Origin: an uncultured Clostridia bacterium
Lineage (GTDB): Bacteria; Bacillota; Clostridia; Lachnospirales; Anaerotignaceae
Assembly: GCA_944377425.1 (NCBI GenBank)
Contig: CALWEX010000046.1
Span: 1-37,603, forward strand
DNA: 37,603 nucleotides
Reading direction: 5' to 3'
A program made the translations under genes and the position numbers. The notes beneath the pieces are model-generated. The model did no database searches and was not told the DNA's origin. It saw nothing but the letters and a program-made list of their open reading frames with translations. Of the stretch, positions 240-37,451 are shown piece by piece (within the stretch, counting starts at the first letter, position 1; every line of letters begins with the position of its first letter).

Positions 240-1607
240 TTAATGTTTAGGGTTTAATTTTTTAAATCCAGTAATTTCTGAAAAAATACCTGTAAATATT
301 ACTCCGGCTAAATATATTAAACCCATAAAACACATTTGGTAAAGTATATTGTTTAACGGCATTAACCTTGATACAAAGGCTGCTAAAATGGCGCACATGC
401 CGCATAAGAAATAATATTTTAATATAGCACGCTTTATTCTGAAATACTTTGAGCTTATAACAACAGCTGGTATAACAGAAGAAGCTGTTGAAACAAAAGC
501 GCCTATTATGTATGCAGGTATGCCCATTAGAGGCATTAAAAAATATATAGTGCCTATACTTAAAAGAGAAGATATAATGCCAGTTATAAATAAATGAAAG
601 TGTTTTCCAAGACTGTTTAAAATACCGTTTAATGTAATTTGAGAATACATAAGCGGGCAAAGCAGAGCAAGTGGTTTTAAAATGTTTCCAAGCTCAGGCA
701 TTGAATATACAATCTGGCATATATCATTTGAAAACGCGTAAAAGAAAACGGCAGCAGCACAGGAAGTAGCAGCTGTAAAGCATATACTTCTGTTAACTGT
801 AGCTTCGGCTATGTTTTTGTTTGAATAAGTTCTCTGCTTTGAAACAGCAGGTATTATACTTACCGAAACAGCACCAAGCATTGATGATGGAAAATGCACA
901 AGGGGCATAACCATACCTGTAAGATGACCATACTGGCTTAAAGCGTCTGTACTTTTTGGATACAGTGAAAGACGCAGTGGTATAAGTATGTTTTCAACAG
1001 CCATTAAAAACGATGAAGCCGCTCTTGACGCTGAAAGAGGAAGAGCCATTGACACAATTTTTTTAAAACAAGATGAAAGGCTTATGCTGCGGCGATTTTT
1101 GTTATACTGTTTTTTGTCTGTTGAAAAAAATAAAAAAGCGGCTGTAAGCAAAAACGAAAACGTTTCTCCAAGCACAACTCCAACTACTGCGGCAGAACAA
1201 GCGCTTTCTATGGTGTCAGGTGAATAAACAGCCATAATGGCAGCTAAAGACAACATTCTTACTGCCTGCTCAAAAATTTGGGATAATGCTGGAAAAATAT
1301 TGTTCTGTCGGCCTAAAAAATATCCCTTTATACATGAGCCTGCGGCCATAAAAGGCAGACAAAGGCTTAATATTTTTAAAGGTGCTGCACCTCGAATGTC
1401 TTTAATAAAGTATTCAGCTGCAAAACCTGCATTAAAGTACATAAGAATACTTATAGTTATACTTAATGACAGACTTATGCCAAGGGCGGCTTTAAGTATT
1501 GTAATTGAGTTTGAAACAGAGTTTTCATTTGTCTGCTCAGCAGTAAGTTTTGATACAGTTGTTGTTATGCCTGAAGCTGTTATGGAGTAGCATAATATAT
1601 ATAAAGG
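240..1607 (-). CDS. spoVB: SpoVB/MurJ-like flippase, 3' part of an interrupted gene
   Basis: This is the C-terminal 454 residues of a multispanning protein of the MATE/MOP flippase superfamily (Polysacc_synt, SpoVB branch). SpoVB acts in the mother cell and is thought to move lipid-linked peptidoglycan precursors for the spore cortex. The reading frame stays open upstream of the first ATG (1442) to the stop at 1617-1619. The extra residues (LYILCYSITASGITTTVSKL...) are typical SpoVB helix 2 sequence, so the gene is cut and does not start at 1442. The matching N-terminus is 7.6 kb away at 9199-9342. Joining at the shared CCT (1605-1607 and 9199-9201) gives 502 residues, a normal family length. 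As it stands there is no promoter or proper start here, so the fragment is probably silent until the element is excised. Confidence 0.9.
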   Translation of the reverse strand, partial: PLYILCYSITASGITTTVSKLTAEQTNENSVSNSITILKAALGISLSLSITISILMYFNAGFAAEYFIKDIRGAAPLKILSLCLPFMAAGSCIKGYFLGRQNNIFPALSQIFEQAVRMLSLAAIMAVYSPDTIESACSAAVVGVVLGETFSFLLTAAFLFFSTDKKQYNKNRRSISLSSCFKKIVSMALPLSASRAASSFLMAVENILIPLRLSLYPKSTDALSQYGHLTGMVMPLVHFPSSMLGAVSVSIIPAVSKQRTYSNKNIAEATVNRSICFTAATSCAAAVFFYAFSNDICQIVYSMPELGNILKPLALLCPLMYSQITLNGILNSLGKHFHLFITGIISSLLSIGTIYFLMPLMGIPAYIIGAFVSTASSVIPAVVISSKYFRIKRAILKYYFLCGMCAILAAFVSRLMPLNNILYQMCFMGLIYLAGVIFTGIFSEITGFKKLNPKH

Positions 1608-1640
1608 TGCTGTTTTTTAATAAGGAAAAATTAAAACAAG
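1599..1640 (-). repeat. Element end / attachment site at the spoVB 3' part
   Basis: On the minus strand this site reads element arm, then CCT (1607-1605), then spoVB codons TTA TAT ATA. The element arm (1608-1634) is an inverted copy, with a few single-base indels, of the arm at the other end (9173-9198). Both contain CAGC, TTATTAAAAA and TTAATTTTTCC blocks. The in-frame stop TAA at 1617-1619 lies in the element arm just upstream, so element transcripts cannot make a fused product. The layout fits a hybrid attL/attR of a large serine recombinase. Confidence 0.75.
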
Positions 1641-1756
1641 CTTTTTAATAAAATTTTTCAAGCATAATAAAACATAAATTATGTTGTTAACCTAAAGCTT
1701 TTTTGAAAGCTTTACAATGATTGTATAATTAATTATATTTTGATATTTTTTATATA

Positions 1757-1790
1757 ACAAAAACAGACAGGGTGGGCTGTCTGTTTTTGT
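1757..1790 (-). terminator. Bidirectional terminator downstream of ilvD
   Basis: A 14-bp perfect stem (1757-1770 with 1777-1790) with loop GGTGGG is flanked by A and T runs on both sides, so it can work in both directions. It follows the ilvD stop by about 60 bp. The remaining 1640-1756 stretch up to the element end is AT-rich; I see no gene in it. Confidence 0.85.
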
Positions 1791-1848
1791 AATTAAAACA
1801 TAAATTAAAAACTGAATAAAAAATTATGCTTAATTCTGTGTTAAATTT

Positions 1849-3513
1849 TTAGTCCATAAATACGGCGCCTGTGTTAGCACTTGTTACAAGCTGTCTGTAA
1901 CGTTTAAGGTAGCCGTTAGGAACTTCTTTAAGTATTGGCTTAAAGTTTTCGCGACGTTTAGCAAGTGTTGCTTCATCAACTTCAACATTAAGTGTGTTAT
2001 TATTCATATCTATTGATATAATGTCGCCTTCTTCAATAAGGCCTATAGGGCCGCCAGCAGCTGCCTCAGGTGAAATATGACCTATTGAAGCGCCTCTTGA
2101 AGCACCTGAAAAACGTCCGTCTGTAATAAGAGCAACTGAGCTGTCAAGACCAAGACCGGCAAGTGTTGCTGTTGGAGCAAGCATTTCTCTCATACCAGGG
2201 CCGCCTTTAGGTCCTTCATATCTTATTACAATTACGTCACCAGGAACAATTTTGCCTGCTGTCATTGCCTCAATACATTCTTCTTCGCTGTTAAATACTC
2301 TTGCAGGTCCTTTATGCACAAGCATTTCTGGAAGAACAGCACCTTTTTTAACAACGGCGCCGTCTGGAGCTATATTGCCCCATAAAACAGCAAGTCCGCC
2401 GTCTGGTGAGTAAGCTGTTTCTTTGCTTCTTATAACCTGTGGGTTACGTACTTTAGCGTTTTTGATATTTTCTGCTATTGTTTTGCATGTACATGTAATA
2501 AGGCTTGTGTCAAAAAGACCATAGCTTTCAAGCTCTTTCATAAGAGCGCTTAAGCCGCCAGCTTCTTCAAGGTCAACAAGGCAGTCAGCACCAGCAGGGG
2601 CCAATTTAACCAAATGTGGTGTTTCTTTGCTTATTCTGTTAATGTCTTCAAAATCTATTGTAAGTCCAGCCTCATGAGCTATAGCAGGAAGGTGCAAAGC
2701 TGTGTTTGTGGAGCAGCCAAGAGCCATATCTGCATGAAGGGCGTTTTCAAGAGCCTTTGCTGTAACAATATCTCTTGGTCTTAAGTCTTTTTCAAGTATT
2801 TCCATTATTTTCATTCCGGCTTCTTTAGCAAGACGTATTCTTCCTGAATTTACGGCAGGAATTGTGCCGTTTCCTGGAAGGCCCATGCCTATAATCTCTG
2901 TAAGGCAGTTCATAGAGTTAGCAGTGAACATACCAGCACAGCTTCCGCAGCCTGGACAAGTGTTGTTTTCAACGTCCATAGCTTCTTCTTCAGTGCATAA
3001 TCCCTGTTCAAGCTTTGGAATAAACTCGTATCCATTGGAATATGTAGTTTTTGAGCCGTCCATAAGCTTACCTGGCATCATAGGGCCGCCGCTTACAAAT
3101 ATACTTGGCAGGTTAAGTCTTAAAGCAGCCATAAGCATGCCTGGAACAATTTTATCGCAGTTAGGTATAAAAACAAGAGCGTCGAATGGGTGGGCGTTAG
3201 CCATAATCTCTACGCTGTCGGCAATATGCTCACGGCTTATAAGTGAGTAGTGCATACCGTCGTGGCCCATAGCAAGGCCGTCGCATACGCCTATAGCTGG
3301 AAATTCAAAAGGTGTACCGCCGGCAAGACGTATTCCGTCTTTAACAGCCTGTGAAATTAAACCAAGGTGCATGTGGCCAGGTATAATATCGTTTTTGGCA
3401 CTTACAACACCTATAAGAGGTCTTTCTATTTCGGCATCAGTAAGGCCTAATGCCTTTAATAATGTTCTGTGAGGAAGTTTTTTAGGTCCTTTTTTAATAG
3501 CATCGCTTCGCAT
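1849..3513 (-). CDS. ilvD: Dihydroxy-acid dehydratase
   Basis: IlvD removes water from 2,3-dihydroxy-isovalerate or -methylvalerate, the third common step of valine, leucine and isoleucine synthesis. At 554 residues it is full length for the bacterial IlvD branch. Fe-S and active-site landmarks are visible: GVCDG (C77), PNCDK (C119) and CPGCGSC (C186, C189, C192). The N-terminal loop reads PGHMHL, with Gly where the [2Fe-2S] type has Cys. This resembles the E. coli oxygen-sensitive [4Fe-4S] type and suits an anaerobe. AAAGGAGAT lies upstream of the ATG. It sits alone as cargo of the spoVB element, divergent from a FadR-type regulator that probably controls it. A sugar-acid dehydratase role (IlvD/Edd superfamily) is less likely given the close IlvD features. 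Confidence 0.92.
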
Positions 3514-3539
3514 TTGAACATCTCCTTTATTTTAAAATC

Positions 3540-3588
3540 AGTCATACAACTTTGTATTGATATTAACTAAAAATTCCTTAAATGTCAA
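3540..3588 (-). promoter_or_regulatory. ilvD promoter with FadR-type operator
   Basis: On the minus strand a -35 TTGACA (3588-3583), a 17-nt spacer and -10 TAATAT (3565-3560) form a near-consensus sigma-A promoter. GTCATAC at 3541-3547 matches the GT-N3-AC core of FadR-subfamily operators and lies just past the expected start point (about 3553). It is part of the repeated block AGTC(A/T)TACAACTTT (3540-3553), which recurs at 3626-3639. Binding there should repress ilvD. Confidence 0.65.
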
Positions 3589-3595
3589 CAGTATA

Positions 3596-3639
3596 TAGAC
3601 AATTTTATTGTTTTTTGGTAAAATTAGTCTTACAACTTT
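3596..3639 (+). promoter_or_regulatory. Promoter and operator of the FadR-type regulator
   Basis: TAGACA (3596-3601), a 17-nt spacer and TAAAAT (3619-3624) make a plausible sigma-A promoter for the divergent regulator. The second copy of the operator-like block, with GTCTTAC at 3627-3633, sits at the expected start point. This is the same placement as at the ilvD promoter, which suggests autoregulation. Confidence 0.55.
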
Positions 3640-3673
3640 AGTTTTTGATTATTTTTTGTAAAGGGTGAATAAT

Positions 3674-4360
3674 ATGAAAGGCCAGTTTATACCGGTAAGC
3701 CAGACAATAGCAAACAGAATAAGTGATATGATTTTTTTAGATAAAAAATATATGCCTGGCAGCAAACTGCCTAATGAATACGATTTAAGCGCTGAATTGG
3801 GTGTAAGCCGTGCCTCCTTAAGAGAGGCTATTAAGATTTTAGCCGCAAAAGGTATTCTTGTTATAAAAAGGGGAAGCGGAACTTTTGTTTCTAATTCAAC
3901 AGGGGAAAGCGATGACATTTACGGAATGAAATACCTTGAGGACAAGAAAAAACTTGTTAAACATTGGTTTGAGTTTAGGCTGATATTAGAGCCTAAAAGT
4001 GCTCGGCTTGCTGCAGAAAACGCCGATGAAAACCAAATTGAGAAAATTTGCGCTGTTTCAGAAAAAATAACCCAGTTAATTAAATCAGGTGAGCCGTTTA
4101 CAAAAGAAGACCAGCAGTTTCATGCTTTAATTGCCGAAGCTACTAAAAATGATGTAATTAAGCTTACAATGCCTTCTATAGAAACTGCCGTAAGCGATGC
4201 TATACAAACATCAACCAAAGCAGGGCATACAGAAAAATCCAACGAAAACGCTCTTTTGTATCATCCATCAATAGCACGATTTATAAAATATCGCGACGGT
4301 GATGGAGCTGAAATGGCAATGAGATTTCATATTTTAAGAGGTTTAAAGGATTTGGAATAG
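3674..4360 (+). CDS. GntR-family regulator, FadR subfamily (FCD domain)
   Basis: A DNA-binding transcription factor of about 228 residues. The N-terminal winged helix-turn-helix is clear (SKLPNEYDLSAELGVSRAS, then LREAIKILAAKGILVIKRGSGTF in the wing). The C-terminal part (from about residue 85) is a helical FCD ligand domain (FRLILEPKSARLAAE, FHALIAEAT, FHILRGL at the end). The ATG at 3674 is preferred to a GTG at 3665 because AAGGGTG (3661-3667) is the ribosome site of the former. It is divergent from ilvD with operator-like repeats between, so ilvD and itself are the likely targets; the ligand is unknown. It is followed 59 bp later by the recombinase genes without a visible terminator, so read-through into them is possible. 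Confidence 0.85.
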   Translation: MKGQFIPVSQTIANRISDMIFLDKKYMPGSKLPNEYDLSAELGVSRASLREAIKILAAKGILVIKRGSGTFVSNSTGESDDIYGMKYLEDKKKLVKHWFEFRLILEPKSARLAAENADENQIEKICAVSEKITQLIKSGEPFTKEDQQFHALIAEATKNDVIKLTMPSIETAVSDAIQTSTKAGHTEKSNENALLYHPSIARFIKYRDGDGAEMAMRFHILRGLKDLE

Positions 4361-4419
4361 TATTTATTATTTCTAATTTGAATATAAATGTAAAAAACAG
4401 TTGAAGGGTATACATTAAT

Positions 4420-5871
4420 TTGAAACAGTGCGGTGTTATAGCTTTTTACATGCGTCTTTCGGCACAAGATGAAAACAACAGAGAAAGCGAAAGCATATCA
4501 AACCAAAGAAGGCTATTACATGATTTTATAAACTCAAAATATGAATTTAAAGAGTGTCATGTTTTGGAATTTGCTGATGACGGATATACTGGTACAAATA
4601 CCTGCCGGCCAGGACTTATAAGTTTAATTAAAGCCATAAAAAGAAATAATATAGACTGTGTTATAGTAAAAGACTTTTCCAGGCTTTCAAGAAATTATAT
4701 TGATTTAGGCAGTTTTGTGGAGTATCTTTTTCCTGCTTTTAGTGTAAGACTTATATCTGTTAACGACTGCTACGACAGCTTAAACTGCCAAATACCATAC
4801 TTGGATATACCTTTTAAAGGTATTATGAATGAGTATTACAGCAGGGATTTATCGGAAAAAATTAAAACAACAAAGCGCCAGTTAATAAAAAACGGCGAAA
4901 TTAAAATAAGCCGGTCTTTTTACGGTTATAAAAAGGACGAAACAGGAAAGACGTATGTTATTGATGAAAAAACTGCCAATGTGGTTAAGTTTATATTTGA
5001 GTGTGCACAAAATGGTATAAGTATTGGGCGCATTGCTTCACTTCTTAATGAAAAAAATATTCCCACACCTTACGAGTATATAAATAAAAAAGAATCAAAA
5101 AGATTATGGAATACAACTAAAATACGAGATATTTTAAATGATGAACGCTATACCGGAACACTTATATTAGGTCGGTATATGTCAAAAGATATAAAAACGC
5201 CTGTAAAAGTGCCTGAAGAAAACTGGCATAAGTTTTACGGGCGATTTGAGCCTATAATTGAAAAAGGGCTTTTTTTTAATATTCAAAACCAGCTGAATAA
5301 AAGCAGAATAAAAAAAATCAAAGAACGTAGAGAGTATCACCCGTTTTACAGAAAAGTTTACTGCGGTGTATGCGGAAAAACTCTTTATCACTCAGGCTAT
5401 GGCCAAAAAGAGTACTTTTACTGCAAAAGAGGCATAGAAAATAAAGAAAGCAAGTGCTTTAAACATACTTTAAAATACAGCGCTTTGGAATTTGTTGTAA
5501 CTAAAATACTTAATCTTAATGTTTCAGTTTTAGGATTTAACACGTACTTTAATAAGGATATAGATTTATGCACTAATAAAAATAATAATGAATTAAAAAA
5601 CACAGCAAAAGCCGCTAAATTAAAAGCTCAAGCTTATGAAATGTATAAGTTTGGAAAAATAGAACCAGATGAATTTTTACAAGAGATAAATTATATAAAC
5701 AAAACTAAAAATGAAATTACCGATAAAAATAACTTTTTTAATTTATCCGTCAGTGAAAATAATAATTATTTTTTAAAATGCGCCATAAAAGTATTTATAA
5801 ACAGAATAAATGTTTACAGTCCTAAAGAAATAGAAATATTTTTAAACTTTTCAAATCCGTTTAAACAATAA
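4420..5871 (+). CDS. Large serine recombinase 1
   Basis: A 483-residue site-specific recombinase of the large serine family (TnpX/SpoIVCA/CcrAB type). The resolvase domain carries the nucleophile Ser14 in YMRLS and the block VIVKDFSRLSRNY (about 81-93). A Recombinase domain follows (YGYKKDETGK, about 168-177, to YTGTLILGRY). Then come a zinc ribbon with Cys315, 318, 335 and 346 and a lysine-rich helical tail typical of the coiled-coil region. The start is TTG, with GAAGGGTA about 10 bp upstream. It is the first of three non-identical recombinase genes in the spoVB element. All catalytic landmarks are present, so it is probably active or was recently. Confidence 0.92.
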   Translation: MKQCGVIAFYMRLSAQDENNRESESISNQRRLLHDFINSKYEFKECHVLEFADDGYTGTNTCRPGLISLIKAIKRNNIDCVIVKDFSRLSRNYIDLGSFVEYLFPAFSVRLISVNDCYDSLNCQIPYLDIPFKGIMNEYYSRDLSEKIKTTKRQLIKNGEIKISRSFYGYKKDETGKTYVIDEKTANVVKFIFECAQNGISIGRIASLLNEKNIPTPYEYINKKESKRLWNTTKIRDILNDERYTGTLILGRYMSKDIKTPVKVPEENWHKFYGRFEPIIEKGLFFNIQNQLNKSRIKKIKERREYHPFYRKVYCGVCGKTLYHSGYGQKEYFYCKRGIENKESKCFKHTLKYSALEFVVTKILNLNVSVLGFNTYFNKDIDLCTNKNNNELKNTAKAAKLKAQAYEMYKFGKIEPDEFLQEINYINKTKNEITDKNNFFNLSVSENNNYFLKCAIKVFINRINVYSPKEIEIFLNFSNPFKQ

Positions 5872-5951
5872 ATTAATAACAGCATTATCAAAGCTCATAT
5901 TTTTTTATAGACAAAATATAATTAATTAAAAAGTTATTGGGGAATTTTTGT

Positions 5952-6164
5952 ATGACCGAAAATAACGGAGAAATAAAAGATATTCAAAACATTGTGTTTA
6001 CGGATAAAATGACTAAAGAAGAAAGAATGGCATATTTTATTGAGCAAATAGGAAATCCTTATGTTTTTAAATGCGGCGATATAACTGTTAAAATTAAATA
6101 TGCTGAAAACGGACCGTCTTTTGAGGACTGTTTTAAAGAATATGTGGACTCTTTGGACTTTTAG
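5952..6164 (+). CDS. Small acidic protein between recombinases (TnpW-like / possible directionality factor)
   Basis: A 70-residue protein, using the ATG at 5952 behind GGGG at 5939-5942 (a TTG at 5937 overlaps that ribosome site). The sequence has a helical, charged N-half and a GDITVKIKYAENGPSFEDCFKEY block. That block (G-x-T-x-K/V-x-I-x-Y/F then S-x-E-D) resembles the short proteins found beside large serine recombinases in clostridial elements (TnpW-like). It ends 2 bp before recombinase 2, so the two are translationally linked. By size and position it could be a recombination directionality factor that allows excision; this is inference. No DNA-binding motif is obvious. Confidence 0.6.
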   Translation: MTENNGEIKDIQNIVFTDKMTKEERMAYFIEQIGNPYVFKCGDITVKIKYAENGPSFEDCFKEYVDSLDF

Positions 6165-6166
6165 GT

Positions 6167-7651
6167 ATGGTAAAAAAGTATAGAGCCGCCGCATATTTAA
6201 GACTTTCAAAAGACGACGGGGATAAAGACGAGAGCAACAGCATTCAAAGCCAAAGAAAAATTATATCTGAGTTTATAAAAAGCAGAACTGATATTGAGCT
6301 TATTAATGAAAAAATTGATGACGGTTTTTCAGGTGTAAGTTTTGAAAGGCCAGCTTTTAAAGCTTTAATTGAAGATATAAAAAATGGTAATATTAACTGT
6401 GTTATAGTTAAGGATTTATCCCGGCTTGGGCGAAACTATATTCAATCAGGGTACTACATAGAGCGTTTTTTTCCTTCGGAAGGCGTAAGATTTATTGCTG
6501 TAACTGACTGTATAGACAGTTTAAAAAAAGGTTTTGGCGACAGCCTTTTAATACCATTTAAAAACCTTCTGAATGATTCCTACAGTGCTGATATATCATC
6601 TAAAATACGTGCCAGCCTTGATATAAAGCGCAAAAATGGTGAGTATATAGGTGCTTTTGCACCATATGGATATAAAAAAGATATTGAAAATAAAAACCTT
6701 CTTGTTAAAGACGAATATTCATCTTTTGTAGTTAAAAATATATTTTTAATGGCTTTTTTTGGTGTAGGCTGTGGCCGAATAGCTGAAAGACTGAATAATA
6801 TAGGTGTTTTGCCGCCTAAGGGATATTTAAATACAACATCGAAAACATCAAAAGAAGCTATCAGCTGGAGCGGAGCAGAGGTTAAAAACATACTTACTAA
6901 TGAGGTTTATACAGGAACCCTCGTTCAAGGCAAAAAAAGTACACCTAATCATAAAATAAAAAAATACACTTTAAAGCCAGAAGATATGTGGTTTAAAGTA
7001 AGTGGAACGCATGAGGCTATTATAAATAAAAATATTTTTAATACAGTAAACAGAGTAATAAAAATTTCGGCAAGAACGTCTTTAGACGGCCAAAGATTTT
7101 ATCTGCTTTCAGGTATTATGTTTTGCGGAAAATGCAAAAGTAAAATGATTCATCATACAATAAATTCAAATGGTATTAAATACATGTATTATATGTGCTC
7201 AGGCTACAAAAAAGGCTTATGCAAAAGCAGTGCCGTGGACAGTATAAGCATTGAAAATACAGTTGCAAGCGTTATAAATATGTTTGCATACTTATATTTA
7301 GGCAATAAAAAAGTATATGAAAATAACTCAAAATTGAAAAACTTAAGCAGTATTTTAAATGCTGAGTATGAAATAAAACTTCTTGAAGAAAGAAAAAAAG
7401 ACATAAACAGAATTGTAGGGTATATTGATTCAGACAGAAAAAAAGGTCTTATTTCAGAAAATGATGCTAAGGAATTGAAAAATTTTTATATAAAAGAAAC
7501 AGAAACAATTATAAAAAGGGTAAACGGACTTTTAAATTCAAAACATAAATATGATATTGGCCATCAAAGAACGGCATTGGCAGAGCTTATAAACAATATA
7601 TTTTTACACAGCAGTAATTTAGTAGAAATTGAGCTGAAATTTAGTTTATAG
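6167..7651 (+). CDS. Large serine recombinase 2
   Basis: A 494-residue large serine recombinase. Nucleophile Ser14 is in YLRLS, followed by ESNSIQSQR, VIVKDLSRLGRNY (about 79-91) and FAPYGYKK at the start of the Recombinase domain (about 164-171). The zinc ribbon has Cys320, 323, 344 and 352. A long charged helical segment (about 385-470) fits the coiled-coil motif that controls synapsis. It starts 2 bp after the small protein, without a good ribosome site of its own, which points to coupled translation. Its sequence differs clearly from recombinases 1 and 3, so the set is not a recent tandem duplication. Confidence 0.93.
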   Translation: MVKKYRAAAYLRLSKDDGDKDESNSIQSQRKIISEFIKSRTDIELINEKIDDGFSGVSFERPAFKALIEDIKNGNINCVIVKDLSRLGRNYIQSGYYIERFFPSEGVRFIAVTDCIDSLKKGFGDSLLIPFKNLLNDSYSADISSKIRASLDIKRKNGEYIGAFAPYGYKKDIENKNLLVKDEYSSFVVKNIFLMAFFGVGCGRIAERLNNIGVLPPKGYLNTTSKTSKEAISWSGAEVKNILTNEVYTGTLVQGKKSTPNHKIKKYTLKPEDMWFKVSGTHEAIINKNIFNTVNRVIKISARTSLDGQRFYLLSGIMFCGKCKSKMIHHTINSNGIKYMYYMCSGYKKGLCKSSAVDSISIENTVASVINMFAYLYLGNKKVYENNSKLKNLSSILNAEYEIKLLEERKKDINRIVGYIDSDRKKGLISENDAKELKNFYIKETETIIKRVNGLLNSKHKYDIGHQRTALAELINNIFLHSSNLVEIELKFSL

Positions 7652-7665
7652 GCAGGTGGTTTGGC

Positions 7666-9114
7666 ATGTATAAAGCAGGGTTATATATACGTGTTTCTGT
7701 GCTTGAATGTAAATATGAAAATGAGTGTCAAAGTGCTGAAAACCAGTTTAAAATTTTGAATGATTATTTAAAAAACAATACTGATATAACTATATATAAT
7801 ACATATTTCGATTTGGGAAAAAGCGGAATGACAAGCCAAAGAGACGGACTTAAAAATATGCTTTCGGATATATATTCGGGTTTAATAAACTGTGTTTTAG
7901 TAAAAGATGTTTCGCGTTTAGGGAGAAATTATACTCAAACAGGAAATTTAATAGAAAAAGTGTTTCCTTTTTGGGGTGTAAGGTTTATTTCAGTTAATGA
8001 CAATTACGACAGCGAAAAAAATTTTAAATACAATAATTGCTTAATGGGGCTTAAAAATATACTTAATGAAGGATATGTACGGGATATATCAAAAAAAGAA
8101 AAAACAGCTTTAAGAGTATTAATGAAAGAAGGGCAGTTTTTAGGCTCTTTAGCCCCATATGGATATATAAAAAACGGTAAAAAACTTGAAATAGATTGCG
8201 AAGCGGCGCATGTGGTTAGGCGGATATTTGAAATGGCAAAAACCAATGTAAGCTGTTATAAAATAGCTAAAACGCTGAATGAGGAAAAAGTTTTAACACC
8301 ATATGCTTATAAAATATCCAAGGGTATTGTTAAAGAAAAAGAATTTCAAAGCTTTTTTTGGCGTGAAAGCGGAATAAAAAGGATACTCAAAAATAGGGCA
8401 TACATTGGAGATATGGTTCAGTCTGTTACTACAACCCTAGCGCCTAAAGGAAAAAATATCAGACTTCCAAAAGAAAAATGGATAGTAGTAGAAAATACCC
8501 ATAAGGCCATAATCAGCAGAAAAGACTTTGAGCTGGTGCAAAATATTTTAAGCCAAAACAGTAAAAAAATAAGTATACCAATAAATAGAGGTGACAGTAC
8601 AGATTTTAATATTTACTGTGGTATGTGTGGTTTTAAAATGAGCCTTAAAAGTATTAAGAGTGGGAGTAGGAAAACAGGATATTATATTTGCTCTGCTAAA
8701 TCATCGGGCGGTGTATGCCAAAACACTGGAATAAAAAGCTCTGTTTTGGATAAAACAGCTTCAAAAGTATTTAAAACATACTGCTTGTTGCTTTTGGTAG
8801 AAACAAACTATACTACATCAGAAGTTAAGCATAAAGTTCAGTGTGCAAAAAGATATACGGTTTTAAAAAAAGCAAATTTATACGAGAAGCTGAAAAGTAA
8901 TAAAATAAAGCAAAATGATTTCGATATAAAAAGCAAAGAGCTTAGTTTAAGAGAAATAAAGTCAAATGAAAAACAAAAATATATTTTAAATACAGAAGAA
9001 ATGCTTTTGAGTAATTCCTATGTTCTGTTGAAAGCCTTTACTGAAAGAATAACTGTTTTAGGCAAAAACGAGATAGAGATTAAAATGAGATTTATTAATC
9101 CTTTTAACTTTTAA
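7666..9114 (+). CDS. Large serine recombinase 3
   Basis: A 482-residue large serine recombinase and the last gene before the element end. Nucleophile Ser11 is in YIRVS, then VLVKDVSRLGRNY (about 77-89) and LAPYGYIKN (about 162-170). The zinc ribbon has Cys318, 321, 342 and 351, and the tail is lysine-rich and helical. The ATG follows GCAGGTGG and lies 14 bp after recombinase 2, so all three recombinases and the small protein form one operon. The stop codon is only about 60 bp from the element's inverted arm, a usual location for the integrase that acts on that site. Confidence 0.93.
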   Translation: MYKAGLYIRVSVLECKYENECQSAENQFKILNDYLKNNTDITIYNTYFDLGKSGMTSQRDGLKNMLSDIYSGLINCVLVKDVSRLGRNYTQTGNLIEKVFPFWGVRFISVNDNYDSEKNFKYNNCLMGLKNILNEGYVRDISKKEKTALRVLMKEGQFLGSLAPYGYIKNGKKLEIDCEAAHVVRRIFEMAKTNVSCYKIAKTLNEEKVLTPYAYKISKGIVKEKEFQSFFWRESGIKRILKNRAYIGDMVQSVTTTLAPKGKNIRLPKEKWIVVENTHKAIISRKDFELVQNILSQNSKKISIPINRGDSTDFNIYCGMCGFKMSLKSIKSGSRKTGYYICSAKSSGGVCQNTGIKSSVLDKTASKVFKTYCLLLLVETNYTTSEVKHKVQCAKRYTVLKKANLYEKLKSNKIKQNDFDIKSKELSLREIKSNEKQKYILNTEEMLLSNSYVLLKAFTERITVLGKNEIEIKMRFINPFNF

Positions 9115-9144
9115 AAGGTAATGTTGTTTTTGTTGCCTGATAAA

Positions 9145-9342
9145 TTATAAAGAATTATAATGTTTACTAAGCTTAATTTTTCCCTTATTAAAAACAGCAG
9201 GCATTATCAGTTGGTAAAGACCCATGCCGCCGGCGCCTATTGATTTTGACATATAAACCCTGTAAAAAAAGCCCATAAACCGGGTTATAATATTGGCGGC
9301 CATTAATATAATACAGCCAACAGCAAAGCTGTTTTTACGCAT
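9145..9342 (-). CDS. spoVB: SpoVB/MurJ-like flippase, 5' part of an interrupted gene
   Basis: The first 48 codons are the true N-terminus of SpoVB. They hold the first membrane helix (FAVGCIILMAANIITRFMGF) and the family signature RVYMSKSIGAGGMGLYQLIMP. After Pro48 the frame enters the element and adds 17 unrelated residues (AVFNKGK...) before a stop at 9145-9147. As it stands the gene makes a 65-residue dead-end peptide. AAAAGGATT lies upstream of the ATG at 9342. The gene is divergent from uvrC and its promoter lies in 9343-9425. A CATAATAA there could be a sporulation-sigma -10, but this is weak. Excision would put codon 48 directly before TTA TAT ATA of the 3' part. Confidence 0.9.
   Translation of the reverse strand: MRKNSFAVGCIILMAANIITRFMGFFYRVYMSKSIGAGGMGLYQLIMPAVFNKGKIKLSKHYNSL
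9165..9210 (-). repeat. Element end / attachment site at the spoVB 5' part
   Basis: On the minus strand this site reads spoVB codons CTG ATA ATG, then CCT (9201-9199), then the element arm (9198-9173). The arm is the inverted partner of the one at 1608-1634. Joined through CCT in an excised circle, the two arms make a near-palindrome of about 56 bp. The spoVB sides of the two junctions do not resemble each other or the arms. That is the expected asymmetry between attB and attP for a serine integrase. Confidence 0.75.
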
Positions 9343-36365: not shown

Positions 36366-37451
36366 TCAAAACGTACTATTTTTAAAAGTTTTCTGTAGCT
36401 TATCAGCAAGTTGAACATGTTCTGTACTATACAAATGGCTGTAAGTGCCTAAAGTGGTTTGAATATCTTCATGTCCTAATCTTTCTTGTATAAGCAATGG
36501 AGACACTCCCATGTTGATTAGAAGGGAAGCGTGGGAGTGCCTTAAATCATGAACACGAATTTTTTTAACACCGGATTTAAGACAGCCAGTTTTTATAAAA
36601 TAGTTTATAGCACTCCTGTTAATCATAAATAAGCGTTCTTTAGGATTGTAGCCATATATTGTATTTGTGTAGCTATGTATAATATCTTCTAAAAATTTAG
36701 GTATTGATATTGTGCGATTGCTTTTTTCTGTCTTTGGAAGATGAATTAAGTCATTGCCCTTAAACCTTGTATAGGACTTATTAATTGAAAGTGTATGGTT
36801 TTCAAAATCAAAATCAGAAAGGGTAAGAGCAAGAAGTTCACCAACACGAATTCCTGTCCAAAACATAATTTGAACAGCAACATATTGTGGTAAAAATTTT
36901 CTTTGAACACATTTATTAACTTCCATAAATTTATTAAATTCATCAATAGTCCAATAATCTACATTTGAAGAAGATTTAGAACATATTTTGCCACATTCTT
37001 TTACTGGATTGGATTTCAAGTTGTAATATTTAACTGCATAATTAAATATTGCCGAAAGATAGCCGTTTATTAATCTTAAGTAATTAGCAGAGTGCTCTTT
37101 ATCAAGCGACATTATGTTGTTTTGCCATAACCTTATTGTTTTAATATCTATTTGATTAATAGGCATTTCTTCAAAATAAGGCAGTATATGCTTCTCTATG
37201 ACTAAATACTTAGTATTATAGCTTGTTGGTCTTTGCCTTGTTTTGCAGTCGTTTAAATATAGTTTTACCAAGTTTTTAAACTTTACATTACAATCTGACG
37301 AATGAAGTTCAATAAAAGAACGCTCAAATTCTAATGCGTCTTTTTTTCTTTTGAATCCTTCCTTCTTTTTTTGCTTTTTACAGCCAGTCCAATCAACATA
37401 ATAGAATTTGCAGAACCATGTTTCTTTTTCTTTGTCTTTGTATACAGGCAT
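36366..37451 (-). CDS. Tyrosine recombinase / phage-type integrase
   Basis: A 361-residue integrase. The N-terminal part has an AP2-like arm-binding segment (WFCKFYYVDWTGCKKQKKKEGFKRKKDALEFE) and a SAM-like core-binding domain (about 55-165). The catalytic domain shows Arg in WTGIRVGELLAL, Lys in LPKTEKSNR, HDLRHSHASLL, LGHEDIQTTLGTYSHLY with the nucleophile Tyr. All active-site residues are present. AGGAGG lies upstream of the ATG. It belongs to the Tn916/phage integrase type usual in Firmicute ICEs and prophages. The rest of such an element would lie to the right of the window; none of it is seen here. Confidence 0.92.
   Translation of the reverse strand: MPVYKDKEKETWFCKFYYVDWTGCKKQKKKEGFKRKKDALEFERSFIELHSSDCNVKFKNLVKLYLNDCKTRQRPTSYNTKYLVIEKHILPYFEEMPINQIDIKTIRLWQNNIMSLDKEHSANYLRLINGYLSAIFNYAVKYYNLKSNPVKECGKICSKSSSNVDYWTIDEFNKFMEVNKCVQRKFLPQYVAVQIMFWTGIRVGELLALTLSDFDFENHTLSINKSYTRFKGNDLIHLPKTEKSNRTISIPKFLEDIIHSYTNTIYGYNPKERLFMINRSAINYFIKTGCLKSGVKKIRVHDLRHSHASLLINMGVSPLLIQERLGHEDIQTTLGTYSHLYSTEHVQLADKLQKTFKNSTF

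What the first reader, a model, noticed from the sequence alone, without database searches (positions are those of the whole stretch)
240..9342. spoVB split by a 7.6-kb excisable element; exact excision restores the gene in frame
Seen: SpoVB N-terminal sequence (ending GLYQLIMP) and C-terminal sequence (starting LYILCYSITASG) lie on the same strand, 7,594 bp apart. The intervening DNA encodes three serine recombinases. Both junctions contain CCT as a whole codon (9201-9199 and 1607-1605), so recombination there yields one 502-codon ORF with no scar. Known: skin in sigK and similar elements in other sporulation genes are excised in the mother cell by large serine recombinases. Inference: this is a spoVB counterpart, where flippase production for the spore cortex would need DNA rearrangement. 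I do not recall spoVB as a described target.
Basis: partly seen in the sequence, partly recalled or inferred. Interest (0 to 1): 0.95.

Follow-up and report, generated by a model that had tools for sequence, protein, structure and literature searches.

The report
Excisable element splitting spore gene spoVB
In three related Clostridia the spore gene spoVB is cut in two by a DNA element that carries its own recombinases, yet both halves have stayed intact while the species diverged, so the element is likely cut out precisely when a spore forms, and other spore genes of the group are split in the same way.

Summary
SpoVB codons 1-48 (9342-9199) and the remaining 455-codon piece (1607-240) flank a 7,594-bp element at a shared CCT. 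Two sister species carry the same element at the same codon; three other species of the genus have an uninterrupted spoVB with no scar. Both halves are under strong purifying selection (dN/dS 0.03-0.08), including 55 codons of the second half that lie before any usual start codon in the window's species. The element ends form an attP-like inverted repeat. The element shows no phage genes: it has three serine recombinases, a DUF6870 gene, ilvD and a GntR/FCD regulator. Context makes developmental excision likely. spoVB is split at three further codons in other genera. The same cassette abuts sigK in five genomes and spoVT in two. In the window's own genus the cortex gene cwlD is split in five of six species, the window's genome included. 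Excision, its timing and the acting recombinase are unproven. Filed as a new variant of gin/skin-type elements: new targets, compact, with metabolic cargo.

The parts
9199..9342 (-). spoVB 5' half, codons 1-48
   Evidence: TIGR02900 positions 2-44
240..1607 (-). spoVB 3' half, 455 codons and stop
   Evidence: TIGR02900 positions 43-483
9199..9201 (-). shared core CCT at the 5' junction
   Evidence: identical in G000, G001, G002
1605..1607 (-). shared core CCT at the 3' junction
   Evidence: identical in G000, G001, G002
9170..9198 (-). inner attachment arm next to the 5' half
   Evidence: inverted repeat with the other arm, score 21, 0 of 2000 shuffles
1608..1636 (+). inner attachment arm next to the 3' half
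   Evidence: inverted repeat with the other arm
1849..3513 (-). ilvD, dihydroxy-acid dehydratase (cargo)
   Evidence: TIGR00110 over its cut-off
3665..4360 (+). GntR/FCD transcription regulator, 59 bases before recombinase 1 on the same strand
   Evidence: PF00392, PF07729
4420..5871 (+). serine recombinase 1 (TTG start)
   Evidence: PF00239, PF07508, PF13408
5895..5922 (+). sigma-E-like site before DUF6870 (weak)
   Evidence: 20 of 22 points against a recalled consensus, 0 of 200 shuffles
5937..6164 (+). DUF6870 ORF (TTG 5937 or ATG 5952), candidate directionality factor
   Evidence: PF21757
6167..7651 (+). serine recombinase 2
   Evidence: PF00239, PF07508, PF13408
7666..9114 (+). serine recombinase 3
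   Evidence: PF00239, PF07508, PF13408

Best explanation
spoVB is split at codon 48 by a 7,594-bp element with its own serine recombinases, and the element is predicted to excise precisely, likely in the sporulating mother cell, so that the gene is rejoined in frame. Shown: the split, the shared CCT core, the inverted repeat at the element ends, the same arrangement in three species, continuity in three others, and purifying selection on both halves and on the recombinases. Inferred: one of the three recombinases, probably with the DUF6870 protein as directionality factor, recombines the two sites at the central CC; the products would be an intact 502-codon spoVB and a circle with ilvD and the regulator; the reaction would be switched on in the mother cell, whose chromosome the spore does not inherit. 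The regulator, in line with the recombinases, and a sigma-E-like site before DUF6870 are candidate switches.
For: Same codon, core and gene order in G000, G001, G002; read-through in G003, G004, G005. dN/dS 0.031-0.054 (5' half) and 0.054-0.077 (3' half), no stops; 0.073-0.092 for codons 1-55 of the 3' half, which have no ATG, GTG or TTG in the window's species. attP-like inverted repeat. Genome has sigE, sigF, sigG, sigH, sigK in single frames. spoVB split at three other codons (G027/G014, G134, G161). Related cassettes abut sigK (5) and spoVT (2) among 22 examined. cwlD split in 5 of 6 species of the genus.
Against: No excised molecule was seen; the circle junction has 0 matches in viral contigs and in 190 loci. 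The sigma-E-like site is weak: 10 of 200 shuffles do as well in G001, and in the sigK cassettes 20-64 of 200. 10 of 22 related cassettes abut genes of other mobile elements, so the class is not confined to spore genes. G027's recombinases have no DUF6870 hit. G014 lacks its 3' spoVB half in the assembly. G060 and G071 have frameshifted spoVB, so the gene may be dispensable in places. Recombinase proteins diverge fast (58-73% identity).
Confidence: 0.75

Rival explanations
1. The element excises and rejoins spoVB, but at random in growing cells (ordinary mobility or phase variation), not as a developmental step; selection acts through the cells that carry the empty site.
For: Purifying selection and precise sites fit equally; 10 of 22 related cassettes abut genes of other mobile elements.
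Against: Repeated hits on sporulation genes: spoVB at four codons, sigK, spoVT, cwlD.
Confidence: 0.15
2. The insertion killed spoVB; the halves are relics and the C47 paralogue does the work.
For: An intact SpoVB-family paralogue exists; G060 and G071 have frameshifted spoVB.
Against: dN/dS 0.03-0.08 and no stops in three species, whereas neutral change at 0.3 per site would give 14.1 stops on average, at least 4 in each of 500 runs.
Confidence: 0.04
3. The two halves are translated separately and work as a split protein without excision.
For: Both halves are open frames; G001 has a TTG at codon 5 of the 3' half.
Against: In G000 the first start codon of the 3' half is at codon 56, and in G002 at codon 52, yet codons 1-55 are conserved; the 5' frame runs into tails that differ between species. 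Unusual starts are not excluded.
Confidence: 0.04
4. Misassembly.
For: All three carriers are drafts of about 40 to 180 contigs.
Against: Both junctions lie inside one contig in each of three assemblies, with the same core and order and 15-18% divergence in the 3' half.
Confidence: 0.02

Closest known systems
gin element in gerE of Bacillus cereus ATCC10987 (PMC5595907; abstract and passages read)
   Same: Non-phage element with three serine recombinases in a spore gene; short shared core; imperfect inverted repeats at the sites.
   Different: 28.6 kb, target gerE, recJ and a restriction system; excision by GirC with GirX shown in the laboratory. Here 7.6 kb, target spoVB, ilvD and a regulator as cargo, the three recombinases in a row, excision not shown.
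skin elements in sigK of Bacillus subtilis and Clostridioides difficile (as described in PMC5595907 and PMC10747680 passages)
   Same: Spore gene split, serine recombinase inside the element, rejoining in the mother cell is the proposed purpose.
   Different: skin is prophage-like with one recombinase and targets sigK. Here no phage genes, three recombinases, target spoVB; the window's sigK is whole.
Prophage(-like) elements in spsM (SP-beta), spoVFB (vfbin) and yabG (yin) (PMC10747680 passages)
   Same: Other sporulation genes split by excisable elements.
   Different: Described there as prophage-like; none is in spoVB, cwlD or spoVT.
fdxN element with XisF of heterocyst-forming cyanobacteria (recalled; HMM hits)
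   Same: Developmental excision by a serine recombinase rejoins a gene in a terminal cell (recalled).
   Different: Other phylum, gene and cell type; XisF model scores 77-100 bits against a cut-off of 375.

Membership tests
Sporulation gene-intervening element (skin/gin kind) | Splits the coding region of a sporulation gene | tested here: met
   TIGR02900 halves around the element
Sporulation gene-intervening element (skin/gin kind) | Exact recombination at a short shared core restores the frame | tested here: met
   Shared CCT; relatives continuous with no extra codon. By sequence only.
Sporulation gene-intervening element (skin/gin kind) | Encodes a large serine recombinase | tested here: met
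   Three
Sporulation gene-intervening element (skin/gin kind) | Attachment sites with inverted-repeat arms around the core | tested here: met
Sporulation gene-intervening element (skin/gin kind) | Encodes a recombination directionality factor | tested here: inconclusive
   DUF6870 is a candidate by position only
Sporulation gene-intervening element (skin/gin kind) | Recombinase or directionality factor under sporulation control | tested here: inconclusive
   Weak sigma-E-like site
Sporulation gene-intervening element (skin/gin kind) | Excision during sporulation | not testable with these tools
   Needs cells or reads
Prophage-like skin | Phage-derived gene content | tested here: not met
   Pfam and NCBIfam hits of the element's seven ORFs show no phage structural or replication gene
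gin proper | Located in gerE, with recJ | tested here: not met
   Target spoVB; no recJ among the element's annotated ORFs. Orthology to girC or girX not tested.

The most novel reading that the evidence does not exclude
In this clade of Clostridia mother-cell DNA excision is a general switch for building the spore cortex: spoVB and cwlD are both split in the window's genome, sigK and spoVT in neighbouring genera, and the elements carry housekeeping genes (ilvD, a pst-pho phosphate operon, an arginine operon), so that a cell committing to sporulation discards biosynthetic genes while it assembles its cortex genes.
Probability: 0.35. Interest if true: 0.93.

Novelty: new variant of a known kind. 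Interest (0 to 1): 0.82.

Why it matters
Programmed DNA rearrangement in bacteria is known from a handful of genes. A cortex flippase gene as target, hit at four codons in three families, together with cwlD, sigK and spoVT, would make it a frequent way of gating spore formation in these Clostridia. It is also a caution for genome annotation: such genes look broken although they probably work, so the ability to sporulate may be under-called. The cwlD case looks testable soon: one carrier, G004, is recorded as Lachnospiraceae bacterium NSJ-143, a strain name and not labelled MAG.

Tried and rejected
Considered and rejected: (1) dead gene after insertion; (2) 3' half translated alone (unusual starts not excluded); (3) separate insertion in each of the three species: between G000 and G002 ilvD, uvrC, hprK and the recombinases have comparable dS (0.53-0.86), so I read the element as ancestral, although recombinase proteins are only 58-73% alike and their dS to G001 is higher (0.93-1.54). 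Unexplained: in G004 the fadR-ilvD pair lies between uvrC and an intact spoVB that are about 40 kb apart, so how the pair came into the element is open.

Led nowhere: circle junction in viral contigs (0); tblastn of recombinase 2 in phages and plasmids gives only matches under 60% identity, TndX among the names. Paper searches, open-licence library only: spoVB + intervening + serine recombinase + sporulation 0; sigK + serine recombinase + spoVT 0; DUF6870 0; cwlD + serine recombinase 0; spoVB + interrupted + prophage + excision 1, a B. subtilis transcription paper, listing only. No structure prediction was run.

Bad or partial runs: one search is empty and one search lacks recombinase hits because a wrong record was read; redone. 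Four extra queries were out of frame; their short hits were ignored. Target genes of the 22 cassettes were read by eye from translations, with HMM confirmation for L159, L173 and L175 only. Of 29 fetched loci with rec2-like genes, 7 had no DUF6870 hit and were left out of the 22. In one search I followed up G134, G161 and G098; other partial matches (G089, G144, G189) were not.

Full report
What is there. The window is contig C46 of a 2.4-Mb genome in 107 contigs. On the minus strand, spoVB codons 1-48 (9342-9199) and 455 further codons (1607-243) are 7,594 bp apart, with CCT in frame at both junctions. The pieces cover complementary parts of TIGR02900. From the 3' half on, the element holds ilvD (-), a GntR/FCD regulator (+), recombinase 1, a DUF6870 gene, recombinase 2 and recombinase 3. 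Recombinases 2 and 3 are 33 and 30% identical to recombinase 1, and all three keep the YxRxS motif (that this is the active site is recalled).

Relatives. A search of 59 genomes with the 3' half found matches in 57. Of the six genomes of the genus, G000, G001 and G002 are split at the same codon with the same gene order; G003, G004 and G005 read through with no extra or missing codon. Junction cores are identical in the three carriers. The element ends form an inverted repeat around CC: scores 21, 14 and 15, reached by 0 of 2000 shuffles each, and by 0, 1 and 0 of 2000 random pairs drawn from the window's element.

Selection. Among the carriers dN/dS is 0.031-0.054 for the 5' half, 0.054-0.077 for the 3' half, 0.015-0.040 for uvrC and hprK, and 0.20-0.30 for the recombinases, with no stops in these genes. 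Codons 1-55 of the 3' half give 0.073-0.092; in G000 they hold no ATG, GTG or TTG (G001 has a TTG at codon 5, G002 an ATG at 52). Neutral change at 0.3 substitutions per site would give 14.1 stops on average and at least 4 in each of 500 runs. The simplest reading is that the protein is made from the rejoined gene.

Redundancy. Another full-length SpoVB-family protein lies at C47 (293 bits; it also hits MurJ at 79 bits, below that cut-off). The uvrC-linked spoVB group is found in 56 of 58 family genomes at E <= 1e-20, often with a second, weaker match. G060 and G071 have frameshifted copies with no recombinase seen in the part inspected. Sporulation sigma factors E, F, G, H and K are present in single frames; SigF is below its cut-offs, SigG, SigH and SigK pass one model and miss another.

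More spoVB splits. G027, another genus of the family, is split at about codon 284 with three serine recombinases on the contig of its 5' half; the halves are on two contigs, cores and frame fit exact rejoining, and the inner arms share AGGGAAAC. G014 of that genus has the same 5' junction, but its 3' half is not in the assembly. An order-level survey found SpoVB in 109 of 147 genomes at E <= 1e-32. G134 is split at about codon 51 by an element of about 14 kb with DUF6870, three serine recombinases and an arginine operon (names by eye), while its genus-mate G098 is continuous. That makes four codons in three families.

Other sporulation genes. Of 29 fetched loci with recombinase-2-like genes, 22, all outside the genus, have DUF6870 with the recombinases. 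Next to the last recombinase lies sigK in 5 (G070, G072, G073, G075, G076, cut after GISRSY), spoVT in 2 (G067, G077), a subtilase in 1 (G008), a truncated tyrosine integrase in 6, the rest of another serine recombinase in 4; 4 are unresolved (by eye). The sigK tail lies about 35 kb away in G072 and G073; it was not found in G075 and not looked for in G070 and G076; the spoVT start was not found in either genome. HMMs confirm SpoVT in both and SigK in G072.

A second cortex gene in the same genome. The serine recombinase on contig C70 runs up to a CwlD piece. In 5 of 6 species of the genus cwlD is split at DAGHGGW; G005 is whole (TIGR02883 219 bits, just under its cut-off of 221.55). The halves lie on one contig and strand about 11.5 kb apart in G001, G002 and G004, and on two contigs in G000 and G003. 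The element holds a phosphate operon with phoU, regulator and kinase, a Na/Pi symporter and one recombinase (several names by eye). dN/dS among G000, G001 and G002 is 0.039-0.043 for the 3' half and 0.085-0.28 for the short 5' half, a weaker constraint. In the family survey 52 of 58 genomes have cwlD at E <= 1e-28; outside the genus I saw no such split (G012 stops at a contig end, G079 looks frameshifted).

How it likely works. In gin, excision needs recombinase GirC and the small factor GirX (PMC5595907, abstract and passages). DUF6870 stands beside the recombinases in 22 of 29 loci and in the spoVB elements of G000, G001, G002 and G134, so it is my candidate factor; the G027 set has none. 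A sigma-E-like site precedes it in the three sister spoVB elements (19-20 of 22 points against a consensus that I recalled; 0, 10 and 3 of 200 shuffles as good), which is suggestive only. SpoVB as lipid II flippase and CwlD as cortex amidase are recalled.

Novelty. Searches of an open-licence library found no paper that joins spoVB, spoVT or cwlD with such elements; subscription papers were not searched. The kind of system is known. The targets, the compact form with metabolic cargo and the repetition across cortex genes are, as far as these searches go, new.

Noticed in passing
L048:2348-4426 (G000:C70); L221, L222, L223, L224: cwlD split by an element of about 11.5 kb with a phosphate operon and one serine recombinase in 5 of 6 species of the genus, the window's genome included.
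   Followed up: partly
L160, L162, L167, L170, L175; L187:4310; L189:16105: sigK cut after GISRSY beside a DUF6870-recombinase cassette in five genomes of one genus; the tail lies about 35 kb away in two.
   Followed up: partly
L159:3401-3892; L173:5060-5551: spoVT lacks its first codons beside a DUF6870-recombinase cassette in two genomes; the other half was not found.
   Followed up: partly
L157:5500-5600 (G008:C40): A subtilase frame is cut at DDNGHGTH beside such a cassette.
   Followed up: no
L156, L158, L166, L171, L174, L176: Related cassettes sit in tyrosine-integrase genes, cut near the H-LRH motif: one mobile element nested in another.
   Followed up: no
L072:5942-8498 (G004:C9): The fadR-ilvD pair of the element lies outside spoVB in G004, between uvrC and an intact spoVB about 40 kb apart.
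   Followed up: partly
window 36366-37451: A tyrosine recombinase of the integrase type near the end of the contig, perhaps the edge of another mobile element.
   Followed up: no
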